Source of the DNA: Ardenticatena maritima
Lineage (GTDB): Bacteria > Chloroflexota > Anaerolineae > Ardenticatenales > Ardenticatenaceae
DNA: 64,000 nucleotides
Reading direction: 5' to 3'
Assembly (NCBI RefSeq): GCF_001306175.1
Contig: NZ_LGKN01000005.1
Span: 1-64,000 of the forward strand
Positions 17,050 to 53,081 of this stretch are shown here, piece after piece. The translations under genes and the position numbers were made by a program. The first letter of the stretch is position 1. The number at the start of each line of letters is the position of its first letter. The notes beneath the pieces are model-generated. The model was not told where the DNA came from, made no database searches, and saw only the letters and a list, made by a program, of their open reading frames with translations.

Positions 17050-17215
17050 CGCGAAGGTGGTACACGAGCCACAGTGCAGGCGGAGTATCGGGCTTCACGC
17101 TCGCGGGCGTGTTACCGTTGCGGGACAGCGCCGGACTTTCACCGGTCTTCCTCCATTGTGCGCCGCGCATCCGGGCGACTGGCGCACCTGCACCGAGCCA
17201 TATGCAATTGTCAAC
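17050..17215 (-). promoter_or_regulatory. Cobalamin (B12) riboswitch
   Basis: Read on the minus strand, the region contains the conserved cobalamin aptamer core: GGTGAAAGTCCGGCGCTG and TCCCGCAACGGTAAC (17111-17143 region), preceded by GGAGGAAGACC, and the B12-box-like AGCCCGATACTCCGCCTG (about 17078-17096). The order and spacing fit the family. The outer limits are approximate. It controls the whole 16-kb minus-strand operon and is followed by two terminator hairpins. Confidence 0.93.
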
Positions 17216-17260: not shown

Positions 17261-17598
17261 GCGGCGGGACACGAACAGCGCGCAAAACGACGCTGAGCGA
17301 GACGGGTTCGCAACCTAACGGGTGTTTGGTCAGCGTGTTCGGGTTGATTTTGCAAACAAAGGAAGTTTGCGTATGTTTGATGCGTAGATTTGCGCATACT
17401 TTGTATCACAAAATAATTCGCAACCCGACGGGGGTTTTTGCCACGCGAGTGGGTTGCGAAATGCTTTGTGTGTCAAAGGAATTTTGCGAATAAAACAAGG
17501 TGTTTTGCGCGTGTGGCGAGCCACTGAGAGGCGCGCTGCGCGGCGATTTGACACATGCAAGGCTTTTGGGTATCGTTGCGCCAGATTGAGCGCACGCT
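17261..17598. other. CRISPR leader-like region without genes
   Basis: About 340 bases with no convincing gene, richer in A and T than its surroundings and directly before the first CRISPR repeat. It holds an imperfect 21-bp direct repeat (17307-17327 and 17417-17437, both beginning TTCGCAACC), a perfect 10-bp inverted repeat TTCGCAACCC/GGGTTGCGAA (17417-17426 and 17451-17460), and a TGCGC/GCGCA inverted repeat close to the array. Repeat polarity and the decayed distal repeat both place the leader here. Leader function is inferred. Confidence 0.6.
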
Positions 17599-46687: not shown

Positions 46688-48034
46688 TCAATCTTTAGGC
46701 ATCGCCTTCAACGCTTCGTATGCCGGGCGCACAATGGTTTCCGGATAGGCCGGCTCGGTAATGCACCAGTAATATTGTTCATCGTCGGGCGTCCAGTCGT
46801 AGTTGCACACATAAATGAGCGACATCAAGCCAATCCATGGACGCCAGTTTTCCTTGGCGAACTGGTACGCCCGCACCAGGTACTCGGCTTGCTGTTCGGG
46901 CGTTACCGCGTGCCAGTGGTAGGGCGAATCGGGACGTGGGTCGGTTGTCCAGCCCATTTCGAGAATGGCCACGCGCCGGTTGGTATCGCCGTATTCTTCC
47001 ATCACAGCCCGCAAATCTTCGACACGGCGGAACGTAAACCAGCGCCCTTTCCCGTACACATCGGGGTTGGCTTCCACTTCATCAGGGCTGACTTCGGGCG
47101 GGGCTTTGAAACCGGGCGCATGCGCTCCCAATACGTCAAAATAGCCCTCGCTGTTGCCGCCCATGGCTTCGTACATGCCGCGCAGATACTCCACATCGTT
47201 CATCGCCACCGGCATGGGGCCACCCGTCGGCGACAACCCAGCACTGATGACGATGGCGTTGGGGTCGGCGCTCTTGATGGCGTTGTACGCTACGCGGAGC
47301 ATTTCCACATATTCGGCCGGGTTGGGCGGCTGGTTGCACCATTCACGCGCCAGGTTGGGCTCATTCCAGATAGAATAGGCGGCAATGCGCCCTTTGTAGC
47401 GGCTCGCCATCGCGTAGAGAAAGTCTGCGTAGTCTTGCAGATTTTGTGGCGGGCCCATCTCGCCGCCGCCGGTGCAGTTCGGGTTCGCCCAAGCCGGCTG
47501 GCGGTCAACACGGGCGAGGATTTTCAGCCCAAATTCGTCATGCGCCATCTCGACAATGCGGTCGGGGCGGCTCCAGTCGAAAGCCCCCTTTGCCGCACCC
47601 TCGATTTCACGCCAGGCGAAATCCTGTTTCACCCAGCGGAACCCCGCATCGCGGATGAGCCCCAAATCGCGGTGCGCCACTTCGGGACGCCACCACATGA
47701 AGGCCTGCATGCCGTAGTCGGGCGAGGTCATCACATCCATGAAGTCGGAAGTTGAGGCCGCCGGCGGTGAAGTTGGCTCCGGCGCAGGTGTGGGTTGTTC
47801 ATTCTCTTGCGCCTCGCCCCCCGTTGCGCCTTCTTCGGTTTGCCCTTCAACGACGGCTTCGGTTGCTGTTGGTTCGGCTGTGGGAGCGGTCGTTTCAGTT
47901 TCAGGTTTCGGTGTAAAGGTTGGTTTGAGCGTCAGAGCGGTGGTGGGAGTGACATCAGCCTGATCACCACCGCCACACGCCGCTAACAAAACCAACAACG
48001 CCATCAGGGTCACCATCAACCAGCGTTTTTGCAT
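46688..48034 (-). CDS. Lipoprotein with GH39/clan-A glycoside-hydrolase-like domain
   Basis: 448 residues. The lipobox L-L-V-L-L-A-A-C-G-G-G gives Cys20; a Thr/Pro/Glu-rich linker covers about 25-95. The remainder is a TIM-barrel of the GH39/GH5 clan: acid/base in A-Y-S-I-W-N-E-P-N-L (near 220), probable nucleophile in V-A-I-L-E-M-G-W (near 345). The substrate is unknown. It is a paralogue of the C-terminal domain of the next gene (shared G-F-x-W-V-K-Q, W-N-E-x-N-L, I-V-I-S-G/A, W-x-x-G-M-I/L). Likely surface-anchored. Confidence 0.85.
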   Translation of the reverse strand: MQKRWLMVTLMALLVLLAACGGGDQADVTPTTALTLKPTFTPKPETETTAPTAEPTATEAVVEGQTEEGATGGEAQENEQPTPAPEPTSPPAASTSDFMDVMTSPDYGMQAFMWWRPEVAHRDLGLIRDAGFRWVKQDFAWREIEGAAKGAFDWSRPDRIVEMAHDEFGLKILARVDRQPAWANPNCTGGGEMGPPQNLQDYADFLYAMASRYKGRIAAYSIWNEPNLAREWCNQPPNPAEYVEMLRVAYNAIKSADPNAIVISAGLSPTGGPMPVAMNDVEYLRGMYEAMGGNSEGYFDVLGAHAPGFKAPPEVSPDEVEANPDVYGKGRWFTFRRVEDLRAVMEEYGDTNRRVAILEMGWTTDPRPDSPYHWHAVTPEQQAEYLVRAYQFAKENWRPWIGLMSLIYVCNYDWTPDDEQYYWCITEPAYPETIVRPAYEALKAMPKD

Positions 48035-48107: not shown

Positions 48108-51074
48108 TTATTTCGGCATAGAAGCCAGGGCATGGTACGTCGGCAAAGGATTGCCGTATTCGTCCACAATCCCCCACTGCGCCTGTTCGGAGCCGGGCGC
48201 GACCATCTTGAAGTTGAGGTTCCAGAGAATCATGCCGCCAACCCAGCCCCAGTTTTTCGCCATCTGGTAGGCTTGCACCGTCCAGGCGGCTTGTTCTTCG
48301 TAGGTGTTATCGTTGGCGTAGGCATAATGTTCGTTGACCGCAGGCCCAACCGCCCAACCAAATTCGGTTGCCCAAATCTTCTTCGCCGAATCGCCGTTGG
48401 CGACCATCACGTTGCGGTAGCCTTCCATAGTGCCGCGGAAGCACCAGGAGTGGTGGCGGTTCTCGAACGGACCACGGAACGTTGCCGTGGGGTCTTGCAC
48501 AGTGCGCCAATCGCCGTCGGCAGGGCAGTTGTAGCCGCTGGGGTGTGCGCCAATGGCGTCGCTGTAATTCTTCAAGCCGGCGTTGTACATTTCTTGCAGG
48601 TATTCAATGTCATCACGGGCGAGGTTGCCCACATTGCCGGCGGGCGTCAACGCACCGCTGATGACGATGATGCTGGGGCAGGCTTCCTTGATAGCCACAT
48701 ACGCCGGTTTGAGCAAGTTCATGTAGTCCGCGGCGCTCAGCGGCTGGTTGCCCCATTCGTAGTGCAAGTTCTGCTCATTCCAAACTTCAATTGCACCCAA
48801 GCCTTTGCCGCAGTAGCGCTTGGCGACTTCGCGCACAAAGTTGGCGTAGGTGTTGGGGTCAGCCGGCGGACCTTCCACGCTCAGGTCGGCGCCTGCGGGG
48901 CGTGCCCACTGCGGCGCTTTCACAATGGAGAAGAGCACCTTGATGCCGTGGCGGTTCGCCGAGTCAATGATGGCGTCCATTTCGCCCCATTGAATTTGCC
49001 CCGGCGCCGGCTCAAAGACTTTCCACTCAATTTGTTGCTTCACCCAATTGAAGCCCAACCCCTGCACCAACTGCATAATCTGGTCTTTGTTCATGTAAAT
49101 CATGTGCGCCTGAATGCCATACGCCATAGGCCCACTTGGCGCTGTGCTGGGCGGCGGTGGCGCCGCCGGTTTTGGCGTGGGTGTTGGCGTTGGCGCGTTG
49201 GGGTCGGGTGTCGCCGTCGGTTCAGGCGTGGGTGTCGCCGTGGGTGTTGGTGTCGCTTCGGGTGTGGGCGTCGGCGAGGGAATGATGACCTCTTGCGAGA
49301 ATTCGCCGTAGGTGGTGGCACCACCGTCATCGGAGACGCCCACAACGATCTGGTAGCGCCCACTTTCTTCAGGCACTGCGAGCGCCACGCTCTTGCTCAG
49401 GTCGCGCACATCGCTGATGATTTCTTCGCCCTTTTCGTTGCGCACTTTGACGACCAGCGAGAAGGTGTTTTGCTGTGCGGCTTGTGCAGCGTTGCCCGAG
49501 CGATACGCTTCGATGACATCGAGCACCGCCGGGTTCGCCAGATGCGTATCCACCGTGGTGACACCCGCCAGGTTGAACGCCTGGAGCATGTTCAACTTGT
49601 ACGCCACCGAGGCGGGCGTTTCCAGGTGCAAAACGCGCTGCGTGCTGGAAGAATCAGCGAACAACACGCGCATGGCATGCGTGGTTTCGTCCGCCGCCAG
49701 CACGCCGTTTTGCAAGGCGGGCAAATTGAAGGCGATTTCCTGCCCCGGCGCGACTTCGGTTGATTCGAGGTCAATTTCAACCTGGGCGAGCGTGGCCAGC
49801 ACTTCGGGGTACGCCACAGCAACAGGCGTTTCGCCGGAGAGGTCGTATGCCCCCACAGGCAACACCGCTTCCAACTCGTAGCGGTTGACTTTGCCCGTCG
49901 CCCACGTCAGCAAGGCGGCGACTTCACCACCTTCACGCCACGCTTCGGGGTCGAGCGGGAGCGTGAGGCGTACCTGGTCGGCGGCGTTGCCAATCGCCAC
50001 AAGGTCGTAGGCGCCACTGTCGAAATCCGTTTCGGAGATGCGCTGCGGTGTCGGCACACGCACAATCAACACTTTGCCGCGCTCATGCAGGGCATCGGCA
50101 AGTTGGCGAATAAAAGAGGCAAATTCCTTCCGCAATGCCGGGTCCACATTGCGGTAGTCAATTTCCAATCCGTCGTAGTTGCGTTCAACCGCCAACGCCA
50201 CCAACTGCGAGACGTGATCGCGGATGACGAGCGGTTGTACCAGAATGTTGTCGGTCAAATCGCTGCGAATCACGCCATCGGCTTGCTGGTTGTGCACCAC
50301 AGGCACCACAAGGACGCCGTTTTCACGCAAGCCGGCTGGTTCTTCGGCGAGTTGCCCCAGCGTGCCATCGGCATTGGCGATGTAGAGGCGCGGGCTGGCG
50401 ACATTCGCCGTGCGCACCAACGCGGCGGCATCGCTTAGGCCGGGCGCCAGTTCCACGCCAGTGGTTGGCACAACAGGCGCCGTCTGCACCACGGCAAAGG
50501 CGCGCGGCACACGGTCCAGGTAGGCGTCAATTTCATCGTCTTCACGATAGAGCGTGTGCGGCACCCACGCCCATTGCGCTCCATCCCACACATAGACATC
50601 AAGCGTTTCATACGGTTCCGATTCATTGGGAATTGGAATAGCCAGCCGCAAGCGGGCTTCCACATCTTCATCTTTGGCGTCAAGCACATACACCGGACTG
50701 CGTACATCCACCTGCGGCGGCAGTGCCTGCAACGCCATCGCCATTTCTTGCGTCAGGTCTTCATCCGCCAGCGGGATATTGCCTTCCAGAAACTCCACAC
50801 GCGGGACGCTTGCCATCCGCACTTTTAGCGGGGCTTGAGCCGCTTCTACCACAACTTGCGTGCCATCCGGGTCGTTGATTGACGCCCCGACGGGGAGTTC
50901 CGTATAGCCTCGGTCAAGGATGCGATCGAAGAGGGAAATGGGGGGGAGCCAAAGCGCCAACAGCAACAACAGTGGAATGACGACAAACGAGACAATCCGC
51001 GCGGCAGACCCTTCAAAGAGCGCCGTCAGCGTCTCCCACACTGTTGGCGATTGCGGTGTTTGTTCATGTTCCAT
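48108..51074 (-). CDS. Membrane-anchored protein: GH18-like barrel with lost catalytic residue plus GH39-like domain
   Basis: 988 residues. A short cytoplasmic start and one membrane helix (about 26-44) lead to a beta-rich part (about 50-200), a GH18-like barrel (about 225-480), an Ig-like/cell-adhesion-type beta domain (about 480-600), a Pro/Thr linker (about 605-640), and a GH39-like barrel (about 645-988). In the GH18 part the strand-4 motif reads D-G-L-E-I-D-Y-R at 301-308, where active enzymes have D-G-x-D-x-D-x-E, so the acid Glu is Arg. The C-terminal barrel retains E-V-W-N-E-Q-N-L and A-T-E-F-G-W, both candidate catalytic Glu. Likely acts on or binds wall or exopolysaccharide (inference). 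Confidence 0.83.
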   Translation of the reverse strand: MEHEQTPQSPTVWETLTALFEGSAARIVSFVVIPLLLLLALWLPPISLFDRILDRGYTELPVGASINDPDGTQVVVEAAQAPLKVRMASVPRVEFLEGNIPLADEDLTQEMAMALQALPPQVDVRSPVYVLDAKDEDVEARLRLAIPIPNESEPYETLDVYVWDGAQWAWVPHTLYREDDEIDAYLDRVPRAFAVVQTAPVVPTTGVELAPGLSDAAALVRTANVASPRLYIANADGTLGQLAEEPAGLRENGVLVVPVVHNQQADGVIRSDLTDNILVQPLVIRDHVSQLVALAVERNYDGLEIDYRNVDPALRKEFASFIRQLADALHERGKVLIVRVPTPQRISETDFDSGAYDLVAIGNAADQVRLTLPLDPEAWREGGEVAALLTWATGKVNRYELEAVLPVGAYDLSGETPVAVAYPEVLATLAQVEIDLESTEVAPGQEIAFNLPALQNGVLAADETTHAMRVLFADSSSTQRVLHLETPASVAYKLNMLQAFNLAGVTTVDTHLANPAVLDVIEAYRSGNAAQAAQQNTFSLVVKVRNEKGEEIISDVRDLSKSVALAVPEESGRYQIVVGVSDDGGATTYGEFSQEVIIPSPTPTPEATPTPTATPTPEPTATPDPNAPTPTPTPKPAAPPPPSTAPSGPMAYGIQAHMIYMNKDQIMQLVQGLGFNWVKQQIEWKVFEPAPGQIQWGEMDAIIDSANRHGIKVLFSIVKAPQWARPAGADLSVEGPPADPNTYANFVREVAKRYCGKGLGAIEVWNEQNLHYEWGNQPLSAADYMNLLKPAYVAIKEACPSIIVISGALTPAGNVGNLARDDIEYLQEMYNAGLKNYSDAIGAHPSGYNCPADGDWRTVQDPTATFRGPFENRHHSWCFRGTMEGYRNVMVANGDSAKKIWATEFGWAVGPAVNEHYAYANDNTYEEQAAWTVQAYQMAKNWGWVGGMILWNLNFKMVAPGSEQAQWGIVDEYGNPLPTYHALASMPK

Positions 51075-51100
51075 GAATGGACCTCCCTACACAGTTCGTT

Positions 51101-51167
51101 CACAACAAAAGAGCCATGAGCATCATGAAAAGGCGCAACCTTTTCAAAAGTGATGCGCAATGGCTCT
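51101..51167 (-). promoter_or_regulatory. Long leader hairpin / attenuator-like structure
   Basis: Minus strand: three stacked paired segments (AGAGCCAT/ATGGCTCT, TGATGC/GCATCA and GAAAAGG/CCTTTTC) form a 58-nt hairpin followed by TTTTGTTGTG. It lies between a good promoter (51238-51266) and the start of the 988-residue gene, 27 bases before its ATG, so it is either an attenuator of that gene or the terminator of the ABC exporter gene 150 bases upstream. Confidence 0.7.
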
Positions 51168-51237
51168 TCTCTGCTCAAAAGAATTCAATTCTGCACCGGT
51201 ACATGTTTCATTCTGTTTCCTCATGAAACCGGCGCGG

Positions 51238-51266
51238 ATTGTAGCACAGCCAACTTTGAACGCCAA
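51238..51266 (-). promoter_or_regulatory. Promoter of the large glycosidase-like gene
   Basis: Minus strand -35 TTGGCG, 17 bp, -10 TACAAT. It implies a leader of about 155 nt that includes the long hairpin. Confidence 0.65.
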
Positions 51267-51324: not shown

Positions 51325-53061
51325 CTATTCGTTTGCATGCTGGCGTCGGTAGAGCCGCGCATACAAGCCATTTTTTGCCAGCAATGTCGCGTGGTCGCCC
51401 TCTTCAACAATGCGCCCGCCATCCATCACCAGAATGCGGTGGGCGATGCGCACCGTGCTCAAACGATGCGCAATGAGAATGGTTGTGCGCCCCGGCAAGA
51501 AACGCGCCAACGCTTGCTGTATCGCCGTCTCACTCTCGCTATCCAACGACGATGTGGCTTCATCCAGAATGAGAATGCGCGGGTCGCGCAAGATAGCCCG
51601 CGCCAATGCAATCCGCTGGCGTTGCCCCCCACTCAACTTGACGCCCCGCTCGCCCACCGGCGTCTCGTAACCGTTCGGCAATGCCATGATGAACTCATGC
51701 GCGTAGGCGGCTTTGGCGGCGGCTTCTACCTCGGCGTCGGTGGCGTCAAGACGACCGTAGCGGATGTTTTCACGCACAGTCGCCGCAAACAAAATGGTAT
51801 CCTGCGGCACGAGCGCCATCTGTTGCCGCAGGCTCGCCAACGTCACAGTGCGGATATCGTATCCGTCAATGAGAATGCGCCCCGCCGTCGGTTCATACAA
51901 GCGCAAAACAAGATTGGCGAGCGTGGTTTTGCCCGCGCCGCTCGGGCCTACCAGCGCCACCACTTCCCCCGGCGCAATGCGCAGCGAAATATCGCACAGC
52001 ACGGGCGTTTGCGCGTTGTACGCAAACGACACATGCTCAAAGCAAATCTCGCCCCGTAGCGGGGGCAACGTTTGCGCGTTGGGCGTATCGGCAATCATCG
52101 GCGGTGTATCCAGCAAGGCGAAAAGGCGTTGCGCCGCCCCAACGGTTTGCTGAAACGCGCCATAGACGCCCGCTAGCGTATTCACCGAGCCGCTCATGAG
52201 GCTGGCGTAGAAGAAAAAGGCGAACACGTCCCCCACCGTGAGCGCCCCACTGAGCGCCTGCCGCCCGGCAAACCACGCCACCACCACAAACGCCACCATG
52301 AAAAGCATCCCCACCGTCGGCGTCAGCAGCGCCAACATGCGCGCCCGACGCAACGCCGCCTGCACGGTCTTCTGCACGCTCGCCACAAACCGCTCGCGGG
52401 CATACGCTTCGCGCCCAAACGCTTGCACCAGCCGCATGTTCGCCAGCGTCTCTGTCGCTACCGCTGTCGCTTCGGCAAGATGGTGCTGAATGGCTTCACT
52501 TTCTCGCCGCAGGACACGCCCGCTCAAGCGTGTGATGAGCCCCACCAGCGGCATCACCAGCAAAACCAGCACCGCCAGCCGCCAGTTCAGCCAAAAGAGA
52601 ATGAGCACCGCGCCGACCAGCCGCAAGGTATGCAACACCAGCGCGGTGATGCTCGTGGTCAACCCCTGCTGGATGGTGGCAATATCGTTCGTCAGGCGCG
52701 AAACGAGTTCACCGCTCTGGGCATTGTCGAAAAAGGGGAGCGAAAGCCGCAAAAGGTGCTCGAAGAGGTGTACGCGCACATCGGCGGTCATCTGCTCGCT
52801 GACCCGGTGCAGGAGATACGTTTCAACAGCGCTACTCACAGCGCGCACCACCAACACGCCAATCAACAGCAACGCCGCACGGTTCAGCGCCGCCGCGTTT
52901 CCGTCAACAAACGCCGCGTTGACCACATCACGAAACAACAGGGGAATGAGAAGCGCCAGCAGGGCTGACACCAGAACAGCGCCTATTGCCGCCCCAAGCA
53001 GGAGACGGTAAGGCGCAAGAAACCGCAGCAGACGTTGCAAATGGCGTGTACGGTTCAGCAT
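51325..53061 (-). CDS. ABC-type multidrug/lipid exporter, fused permease and ATPase
   Basis: 578 residues, a half-transporter expected to work as a homodimer. Six membrane helices (about 15-300) are followed by an ATPase: Walker A G-P-S-G-A-G-K-T-T (near 373), Q-loop V-P-Q-D-T-I-L-F, signature L-S-G-G-Q-R-Q-R, Walker B I-L-I-L-D-E-A-T-S-S and H-loop I-A-H-R-L-S-T. This is the MsbA/LmrA/BmrA class; the substrate cannot be read from sequence. The ATG at 53061 is chosen; a GTG two codons earlier is possible. Confidence 0.93.
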   Translation of the reverse strand: MLNRTRHLQRLLRFLAPYRLLLGAAIGAVLVSALLALLIPLLFRDVVNAAFVDGNAAALNRAALLLIGVLVVRAVSSAVETYLLHRVSEQMTADVRVHLFEHLLRLSLPFFDNAQSGELVSRLTNDIATIQQGLTTSITALVLHTLRLVGAVLILFWLNWRLAVLVLLVMPLVGLITRLSGRVLRRESEAIQHHLAEATAVATETLANMRLVQAFGREAYARERFVASVQKTVQAALRRARMLALLTPTVGMLFMVAFVVVAWFAGRQALSGALTVGDVFAFFFYASLMSGSVNTLAGVYGAFQQTVGAAQRLFALLDTPPMIADTPNAQTLPPLRGEICFEHVSFAYNAQTPVLCDISLRIAPGEVVALVGPSGAGKTTLANLVLRLYEPTAGRILIDGYDIRTVTLASLRQQMALVPQDTILFAATVRENIRYGRLDATDAEVEAAAKAAYAHEFIMALPNGYETPVGERGVKLSGGQRQRIALARAILRDPRILILDEATSSLDSESETAIQQALARFLPGRTTILIAHRLSTVRIAHRILVMDGGRIVEEGDHATLLAKNGLYARLYRRQHANE

Positions 53062-53081
53062 GGGCACCGTGTCGGGGTGAA

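What the first reader, a model, noticed from the sequence alone, without database searches (positions are those of the whole stretch)
51101..51266. Long stacked hairpin in the leader of the glycosidase-like gene
A good promoter is followed by a 155-base leader that folds into a 58-nt hairpin with a T-tract, 27 bases before the start codon. TTGCGC occurs in both arms, allowing alternative pairings. It may be a regulatory leader of unknown type.
Basis: seen in the sequence. Interest (0 to 1): 0.5.

Follow-up and report, generated by a model that had tools for sequence, protein, structure and literature searches.

The report
Terminator-like hairpin before a glycosidase gene
Between a well-conserved promoter and a membrane-bound glycosidase gene of a heat-loving Ardenticatena bacterium sits a long RNA hairpin that looks like a stop signal for transcription, so the gene is probably kept low by early termination; this is a familiar kind of control, and what would release it is unknown.

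Summary
On the minus strand a promoter (TTGGCG-17-TACAAT with extended -10, 51266-51238) is followed by a leader of about 155 nt with a 60-nt hairpin (51168-51109, -30.9 kcal/mol, z -6.6), then TTTTGTTGTG, a Shine-Dalgarno site and the ATG (51074) of the 988-residue gene. The promoter is real: sites of this type occur in 44 of 93 orthologue upstream regions of the class, 2 of 93 antisense, 0 of 92 coding controls. In the only other Ardenticatena genome held, the promoter block is 48/50 identical and outer stem and U-tract are kept, at the same 34 nt from the ATG, while 5' leader (39/61) and apex (9/22) drifted. The TTGCGC repeat is not kept; no antiterminator pairing passes its control. Rfam has no match; the hairpin is single-copy. 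Best reading: an intrinsic terminator inside the gene's own leader (attenuator-like gate), possibly also stopping readthrough from the ABC gene. A sensor is not shown. Some sister lineages have other terminator-like hairpins, not all, and leaders are no more structured than nearby upstream DNA. New member of a known kind; modest interest.

The parts
51238..51266 (-). sigma-70 type promoter TTGGCG-17-TACAAT with extended -10 (TGC)
   Evidence: block 51280-51231 is 48 of 50 identical in the sister species; same type found upstream of orthologues in 44 of 93 loci vs 2 of 93 antisense
51075..51231 (-). 5' leader, about 155 nt, transcription start inferred from the -10
51109..51168 (-). 60-nt stacked hairpin, terminator-like
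   Evidence: outer stem conserved in G001
51101..51110 (-). U-tract UUUUGUUGUG following (overlapping the base of) the stem
51082..51087 (-). Shine-Dalgarno GGGAGG
   Evidence: sequence
48108..51074 (-). 988-residue gene: N-terminal membrane segment, GH18-like part, C-terminal GH-A-type glycosidase part
46688..48034 (-). 448-residue downstream gene, similar to the C-terminal part; probable operon partner
51325..53067 (-). upstream ABC exporter gene (580 residues)

Best explanation
The hairpin plus U-tract is an intrinsic transcription terminator placed inside the 5' leader of the 988-residue glycosidase gene. RNA polymerase starts at the conserved promoter, makes about 125-130 nt, and a fraction stops at the U-tract; the rest reads on into the gene and its partner. 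It works as an attenuator-like gate that sets (and perhaps modulates) expression, and as a side effect it also stops readthrough from the ABC gene. Shown: promoter, hairpin, U-tract, their order, and conservation of stem, U-tract and spacing in the sister species. Inferred: that termination happens, that it is partial, and that it is regulated. Not found: any sensor or antiterminator.
For: Promoter upstream of the hairpin, 48/50 identical in G001 and conserved in type across the class, 44/93 sense vs 2/93 antisense vs 0/92 coding. Outer stem and U-tract conserved (11/12 and 15/17 columns) while apex (9/22) and 5' leader (39/61) drifted; hairpins of 60 and 58 nt, both 34 nt before the ATG; one copy in each of the two Ardenticatena genomes, none in the 5 other genomes searched. 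0 of 30 shuffled leaders give as good a U-tract hairpin for the window, also 0 of 30 for G001. Still -20.3 and -18.0 kcal/mol at 55 C. The ABC/ClpP/MarR neighbours were found in only the two Ardenticatena loci, yet the sister-genus species G002 (L066) and G005 (L077) share a hairpin AACCATCG..CGRTGGTT followed by a T-run in an otherwise diverged leader. Over 42 leaders, U-tract hairpins at or below -15 kcal/mol: 14 sense, 6 antisense, 6 in the 150 nt upstream; shuffles mean 6.1, maximum 12 over 30 rounds.
Against: The stem is long for an intrinsic terminator and the U-tract is interrupted by G. Only two species carry this hairpin and the stem has no clean compensatory double change. Full leaders across the class are no more structured than equal-length upstream DNA (mean z -1.04 vs -1.25, p 0.52). 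G004, same genus as G002, has a promoter-like site and a leader but no such hairpin on reading; G003 has no promoter and no leader. In L077 the homologous hairpin is weak on its own (-9.8). 15 of 42 leaders had no U-tract hairpin at all in the scan. Antiterminator controls failed.
Confidence: 0.55

Rival explanations
1. The hairpin is mainly the terminator of the ABC gene, whose 3' end overlaps the glycosidase promoter; its effect on the glycosidase transcript is incidental or small.
For: The ABC gene ends at 51325 on the same strand, about 156 nt before the hairpin; U-tract hairpins in the 150 nt upstream of the promoter are weak (-9.5 in the window, -11.8 in G001) and the spacer is poorly conserved (23/44). 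The ABC gene is upstream in both species that share the hairpin.
Against: The conserved promoter lies upstream of the hairpin, so its transcripts must cross it. Sister-genus species without this ABC neighbour have terminator-like hairpins in their leaders.
Confidence: 0.2
2. The hairpin does not terminate transcription; it stabilises the mRNA 5' end, is cut by an endonuclease, or tunes access to the ribosome binding site.
For: Long, stable hairpin 34 nt before the ATG in both species; long stem and interrupted U-tract; the same DNA also folds strongly with a weaker T-rich tail on the other strand (anti -27.8).
Against: The U-tract UUUUGYUGUG is conserved exactly where a terminator needs it (15/17 columns with the 3' stem); the Shine-Dalgarno lies outside the stem.
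Confidence: 0.15
3. A ligand- or protein-responsive switch: the 5' half of the leader senses something and opens or closes the terminator.
For: Order promoter - 60 nt - terminator - gene; lowest-energy folds of the unfinished leader pair the 5' half with the terminator's 5' arm in both species.
Against: That pairing is no better than shuffles (138/200 and 56/200; consensus fold 433/500); the 5' half is the drifting part (39/61); no Rfam match; no LicT/BglG RNA-binding domain in the genome; the 26-codon ORF in the window's leader loses its start in G001.
Confidence: 0.07
4. A relic of a mobile palindromic repeat that happened to land in the leader.
For: Other leaders in the class contain palindromes that look like inserted repeats (L062, L038).
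Against: Single copy in the genome and conserved stem with drifted apex in a second species.
Confidence: 0.03

Closest known systems
Intrinsic (Rho-independent) terminators in 5' leaders / premature termination in 5' UTRs (E. coli 3'-end mapping, PMC7815308; abstract, outline and section 16 read)
   Same: Stem followed by a U-rich tract between promoter and start codon; would yield short leader RNAs.
   Different: No 3' end has been mapped here; the stem is longer than usual and the U-tract is broken by G. Much of that paper concerns Rho-dependent sites; no Rho element was tested here.
Transcription attenuators and riboswitches with a terminator expression platform (general knowledge)
   Same: Promoter, leader, terminator, gene in that order.
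   Different: No conserved aptamer, antiterminator or leader peptide found.
BglG/LicT antiterminator-controlled sugar genes (recalled; NagY paper PMC9981650 seen in a search listing only)
   Same: Terminator in the leader of a glycosidase-type gene.
   Different: No CAT_RBD protein found in this genome.

Membership tests
Intrinsic terminator | stable stem-loop directly followed by a U-rich tract on the transcribed strand | tested here: met
   U-tract interrupted by G
Intrinsic terminator | RNA 3' ends at the U-tract | not testable with these tools
   no transcript data
5'-leader attenuator | terminator lies downstream of the gene's own promoter and upstream of its start | tested here: met
   by sequence and conservation:
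5'-leader attenuator | mutually exclusive antiterminator, conserved | tested here: inconclusive
   no support, but only two species, so little power
5'-leader attenuator | leader peptide conserved (peptide-type attenuators) | tested here: not met
   ATG of the window's 26-codon leader ORF falls in a gap in G001
Known riboswitch / RNA family | match to an Rfam model | tested here: not met
   (best E 0.27, a snoRNA family, below its threshold)
BglG/LicT system | RNA-binding CAT_RBD antiterminator encoded in the genome | tested here: not met
   0 of 1 genome; control found in 4 of 14 known genomes

The most novel reading that the evidence does not exclude
This membrane glycosidase gene is kept behind a leader terminator in several Anaerolineae lineages, the hairpin being re-made with new sequence each time behind one old promoter, so that an undescribed attenuation control with an unknown trigger acts on it.
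Probability: 0.12. Interest if true: 0.5.

Novelty: new member of a known kind. Interest (0 to 1): 0.25.

Why it matters
If termination is shown, it gives a defined leader-termination site in Ardenticatena and a class-wide promoter that can serve as a fixed point to study how leader control of a surface glycosidase evolves. If not, it remains an ordinary conserved hairpin.

Tried and rejected
Rejected: TTGCGC-based alternative pairing (second copy absent in G001). Not supported: a conserved antiterminator. Rejected: conserved leader peptide. Rejected: Rfam family (and for family f17 leaders 53, 54: only chance-level hits). Rejected: repeat element. Rejected: LicT-type control. Not upheld: a class-wide excess of leader structure over upstream DNA.

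Literature: the searches listed nothing on this leader. PMC4591325: abstract and outline only. PMC7815308: abstract, outline and section 16. Other papers: search listings only.

Full report
What is there. The gene runs on the minus strand (48108-51074, 988 codons). Upstream on that strand lie the ABC exporter (stop at 51325), a promoter TTGGCG-17-TACAAT with extended -10 (51266-51238), a leader of about 155 nt, a 60-nt hairpin (51168-51109), UUUUGUUGUG, GGGAGG and the ATG. The hairpin with its tail has z -6.64, 0 of 200 shuffles as stable; the leader as a whole z -2.29, 3 of 200. Pfam finds only weak GH18 (below cut-off) and GH42 (just above cut-off) matches in the protein.

Where it comes from. 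The nearest relative held is G001, whose contig length (33522) equals that of WFOS01000075.1, titled Ardenticatena sp. isolate S012_161; the protein is 90% identical. The window's genome has 3,559,695 bases, close to the 3,569,367 bp reported for A. maritima 110S (PMC4591325, abstract); that the window is A. maritima itself is inference.

The promoter. Orthologues by the N-terminal 301 residues are found in 223 of 396 genomes of the class at E 1e-15. Of 188 loci handed to the script 124 had an N-terminal hit and 93 were distinct; 90 of the 93 had the full 420 nt upstream. A TTG-type -35 (at least 5 of 6) 16-18 nt from TGnTAnnAT lies within 420 nt in 44 of 93, against 2 of 93 on the antisense strand and 0 of 92 in coding DNA. 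TTGCCA with a 17-nt spacer exactly: 19 against 1 of 93. So a promoter of this type upstream of the gene is conserved, and the one of the window lies upstream of the hairpin.

The hairpin in the sister species. In G001 the promoter block is 48/50 identical, the spacer from ABC to promoter 23/44, the 5' leader 39/61, the outer 5' stem 11/12, inner 6/8, apex 9/22, 3' inner stem 7/10, 3' outer stem with U-tract 15/17 (alignment, counts). The hairpins are 60 and 58 nt, -30.9 and -27.1 kcal/mol at 37 C, -20.3 and -18.0 at 55 C, both 34 nt from the ATG. The apical helices differ in sequence and the outer stem did not vary, so the shape is retained but there is no clean compensatory change. A pattern for the stem is found once in each of these two genomes and in none of the other five searched.

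Other lineages. In the sister genus, L066 (G002) and L077 (G005) share AACCATCG..CGRTGGTT plus a T-run inside an otherwise diverged leader, though in L077 this hairpin alone is weak (-9.8) and the scan's best hairpin lies elsewhere. L064 and L078 share CCCTCAGCRAGCTGAAGGGTATTTTATTG. G004, of the same genus as G002, has a promoter-like site and a leader but no such hairpin on reading; G003 has no leader. The ABC, ClpP and MarR neighbours were found only in the two Ardenticatena loci.

Statistics over 42 leaders of at least 60 nt (two shorter ones, L075 and L091, dropped). U-tract hairpins at or below -15 kcal/mol: 14 sense, 6 antisense, 6 in the 150 nt upstream; shuffles mean 6.1, maximum 12. 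This leans to terminators in leaders. Against it, minimum-energy z-scores are the same in leaders and upstream DNA (-1.04 vs -1.25, p 0.52), both lower than in coding DNA (-0.28). The 42 include closely related leaders (for example L035, L063, L079), so they are not independent.

Switching. Folding the unfinished leader pairs its 5' half with the terminator's 5' arm in both species, but the pairing energy is ordinary (138/200 and 56/200 shuffles as good) and the two-species consensus fold does not show it (433/500). TTGCGC is not kept. No Rfam match, no CAT_RBD protein.

Verdict. A real, conserved terminator-like hairpin inside the leader of the glycosidase gene. It most likely works as an intrinsic terminator that gates the gene, and may double as a stop for ABC readthrough. 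No sensor is shown. It is a new example of a known kind.

Noticed in passing
17062-17206 (-): Cobalamin riboswitch, 59.3 bits; a 28-nt inverted repeat lies nearby at 17399-17478.
   Followed up: no
48108-51074 (-), residues about 301-309: The GH18-like part reads DGLEIDYRN, without the glutamate of the GH18 catalytic motif (motif recalled), while the C-terminal part keeps invariant E767 (WNEQN) and E904 in a 7-sequence alignment: possibly a dead GH18 domain fused to a live glycosidase.
   Followed up: no
L084, L099, L187, L199 leaders upstream of the orthologous gene: In one other family the leader seems closed by a long-range stem (GGCGGTAGRC..GTCTACCGCC with a T-run; GACGGCAGA/TCTGCCGTC against GGACGGTAGAC/GTCTACCGTCC, which look compensatory by eye). 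No Rfam match for L099 and L084. L061 lacks the 5' side in the alignment, and the consensus fold did not pick this stem.
   Followed up: partly
L062 and L038 leaders: Palindromes that look like inserted repeats sit inside the leader.
   Followed up: no
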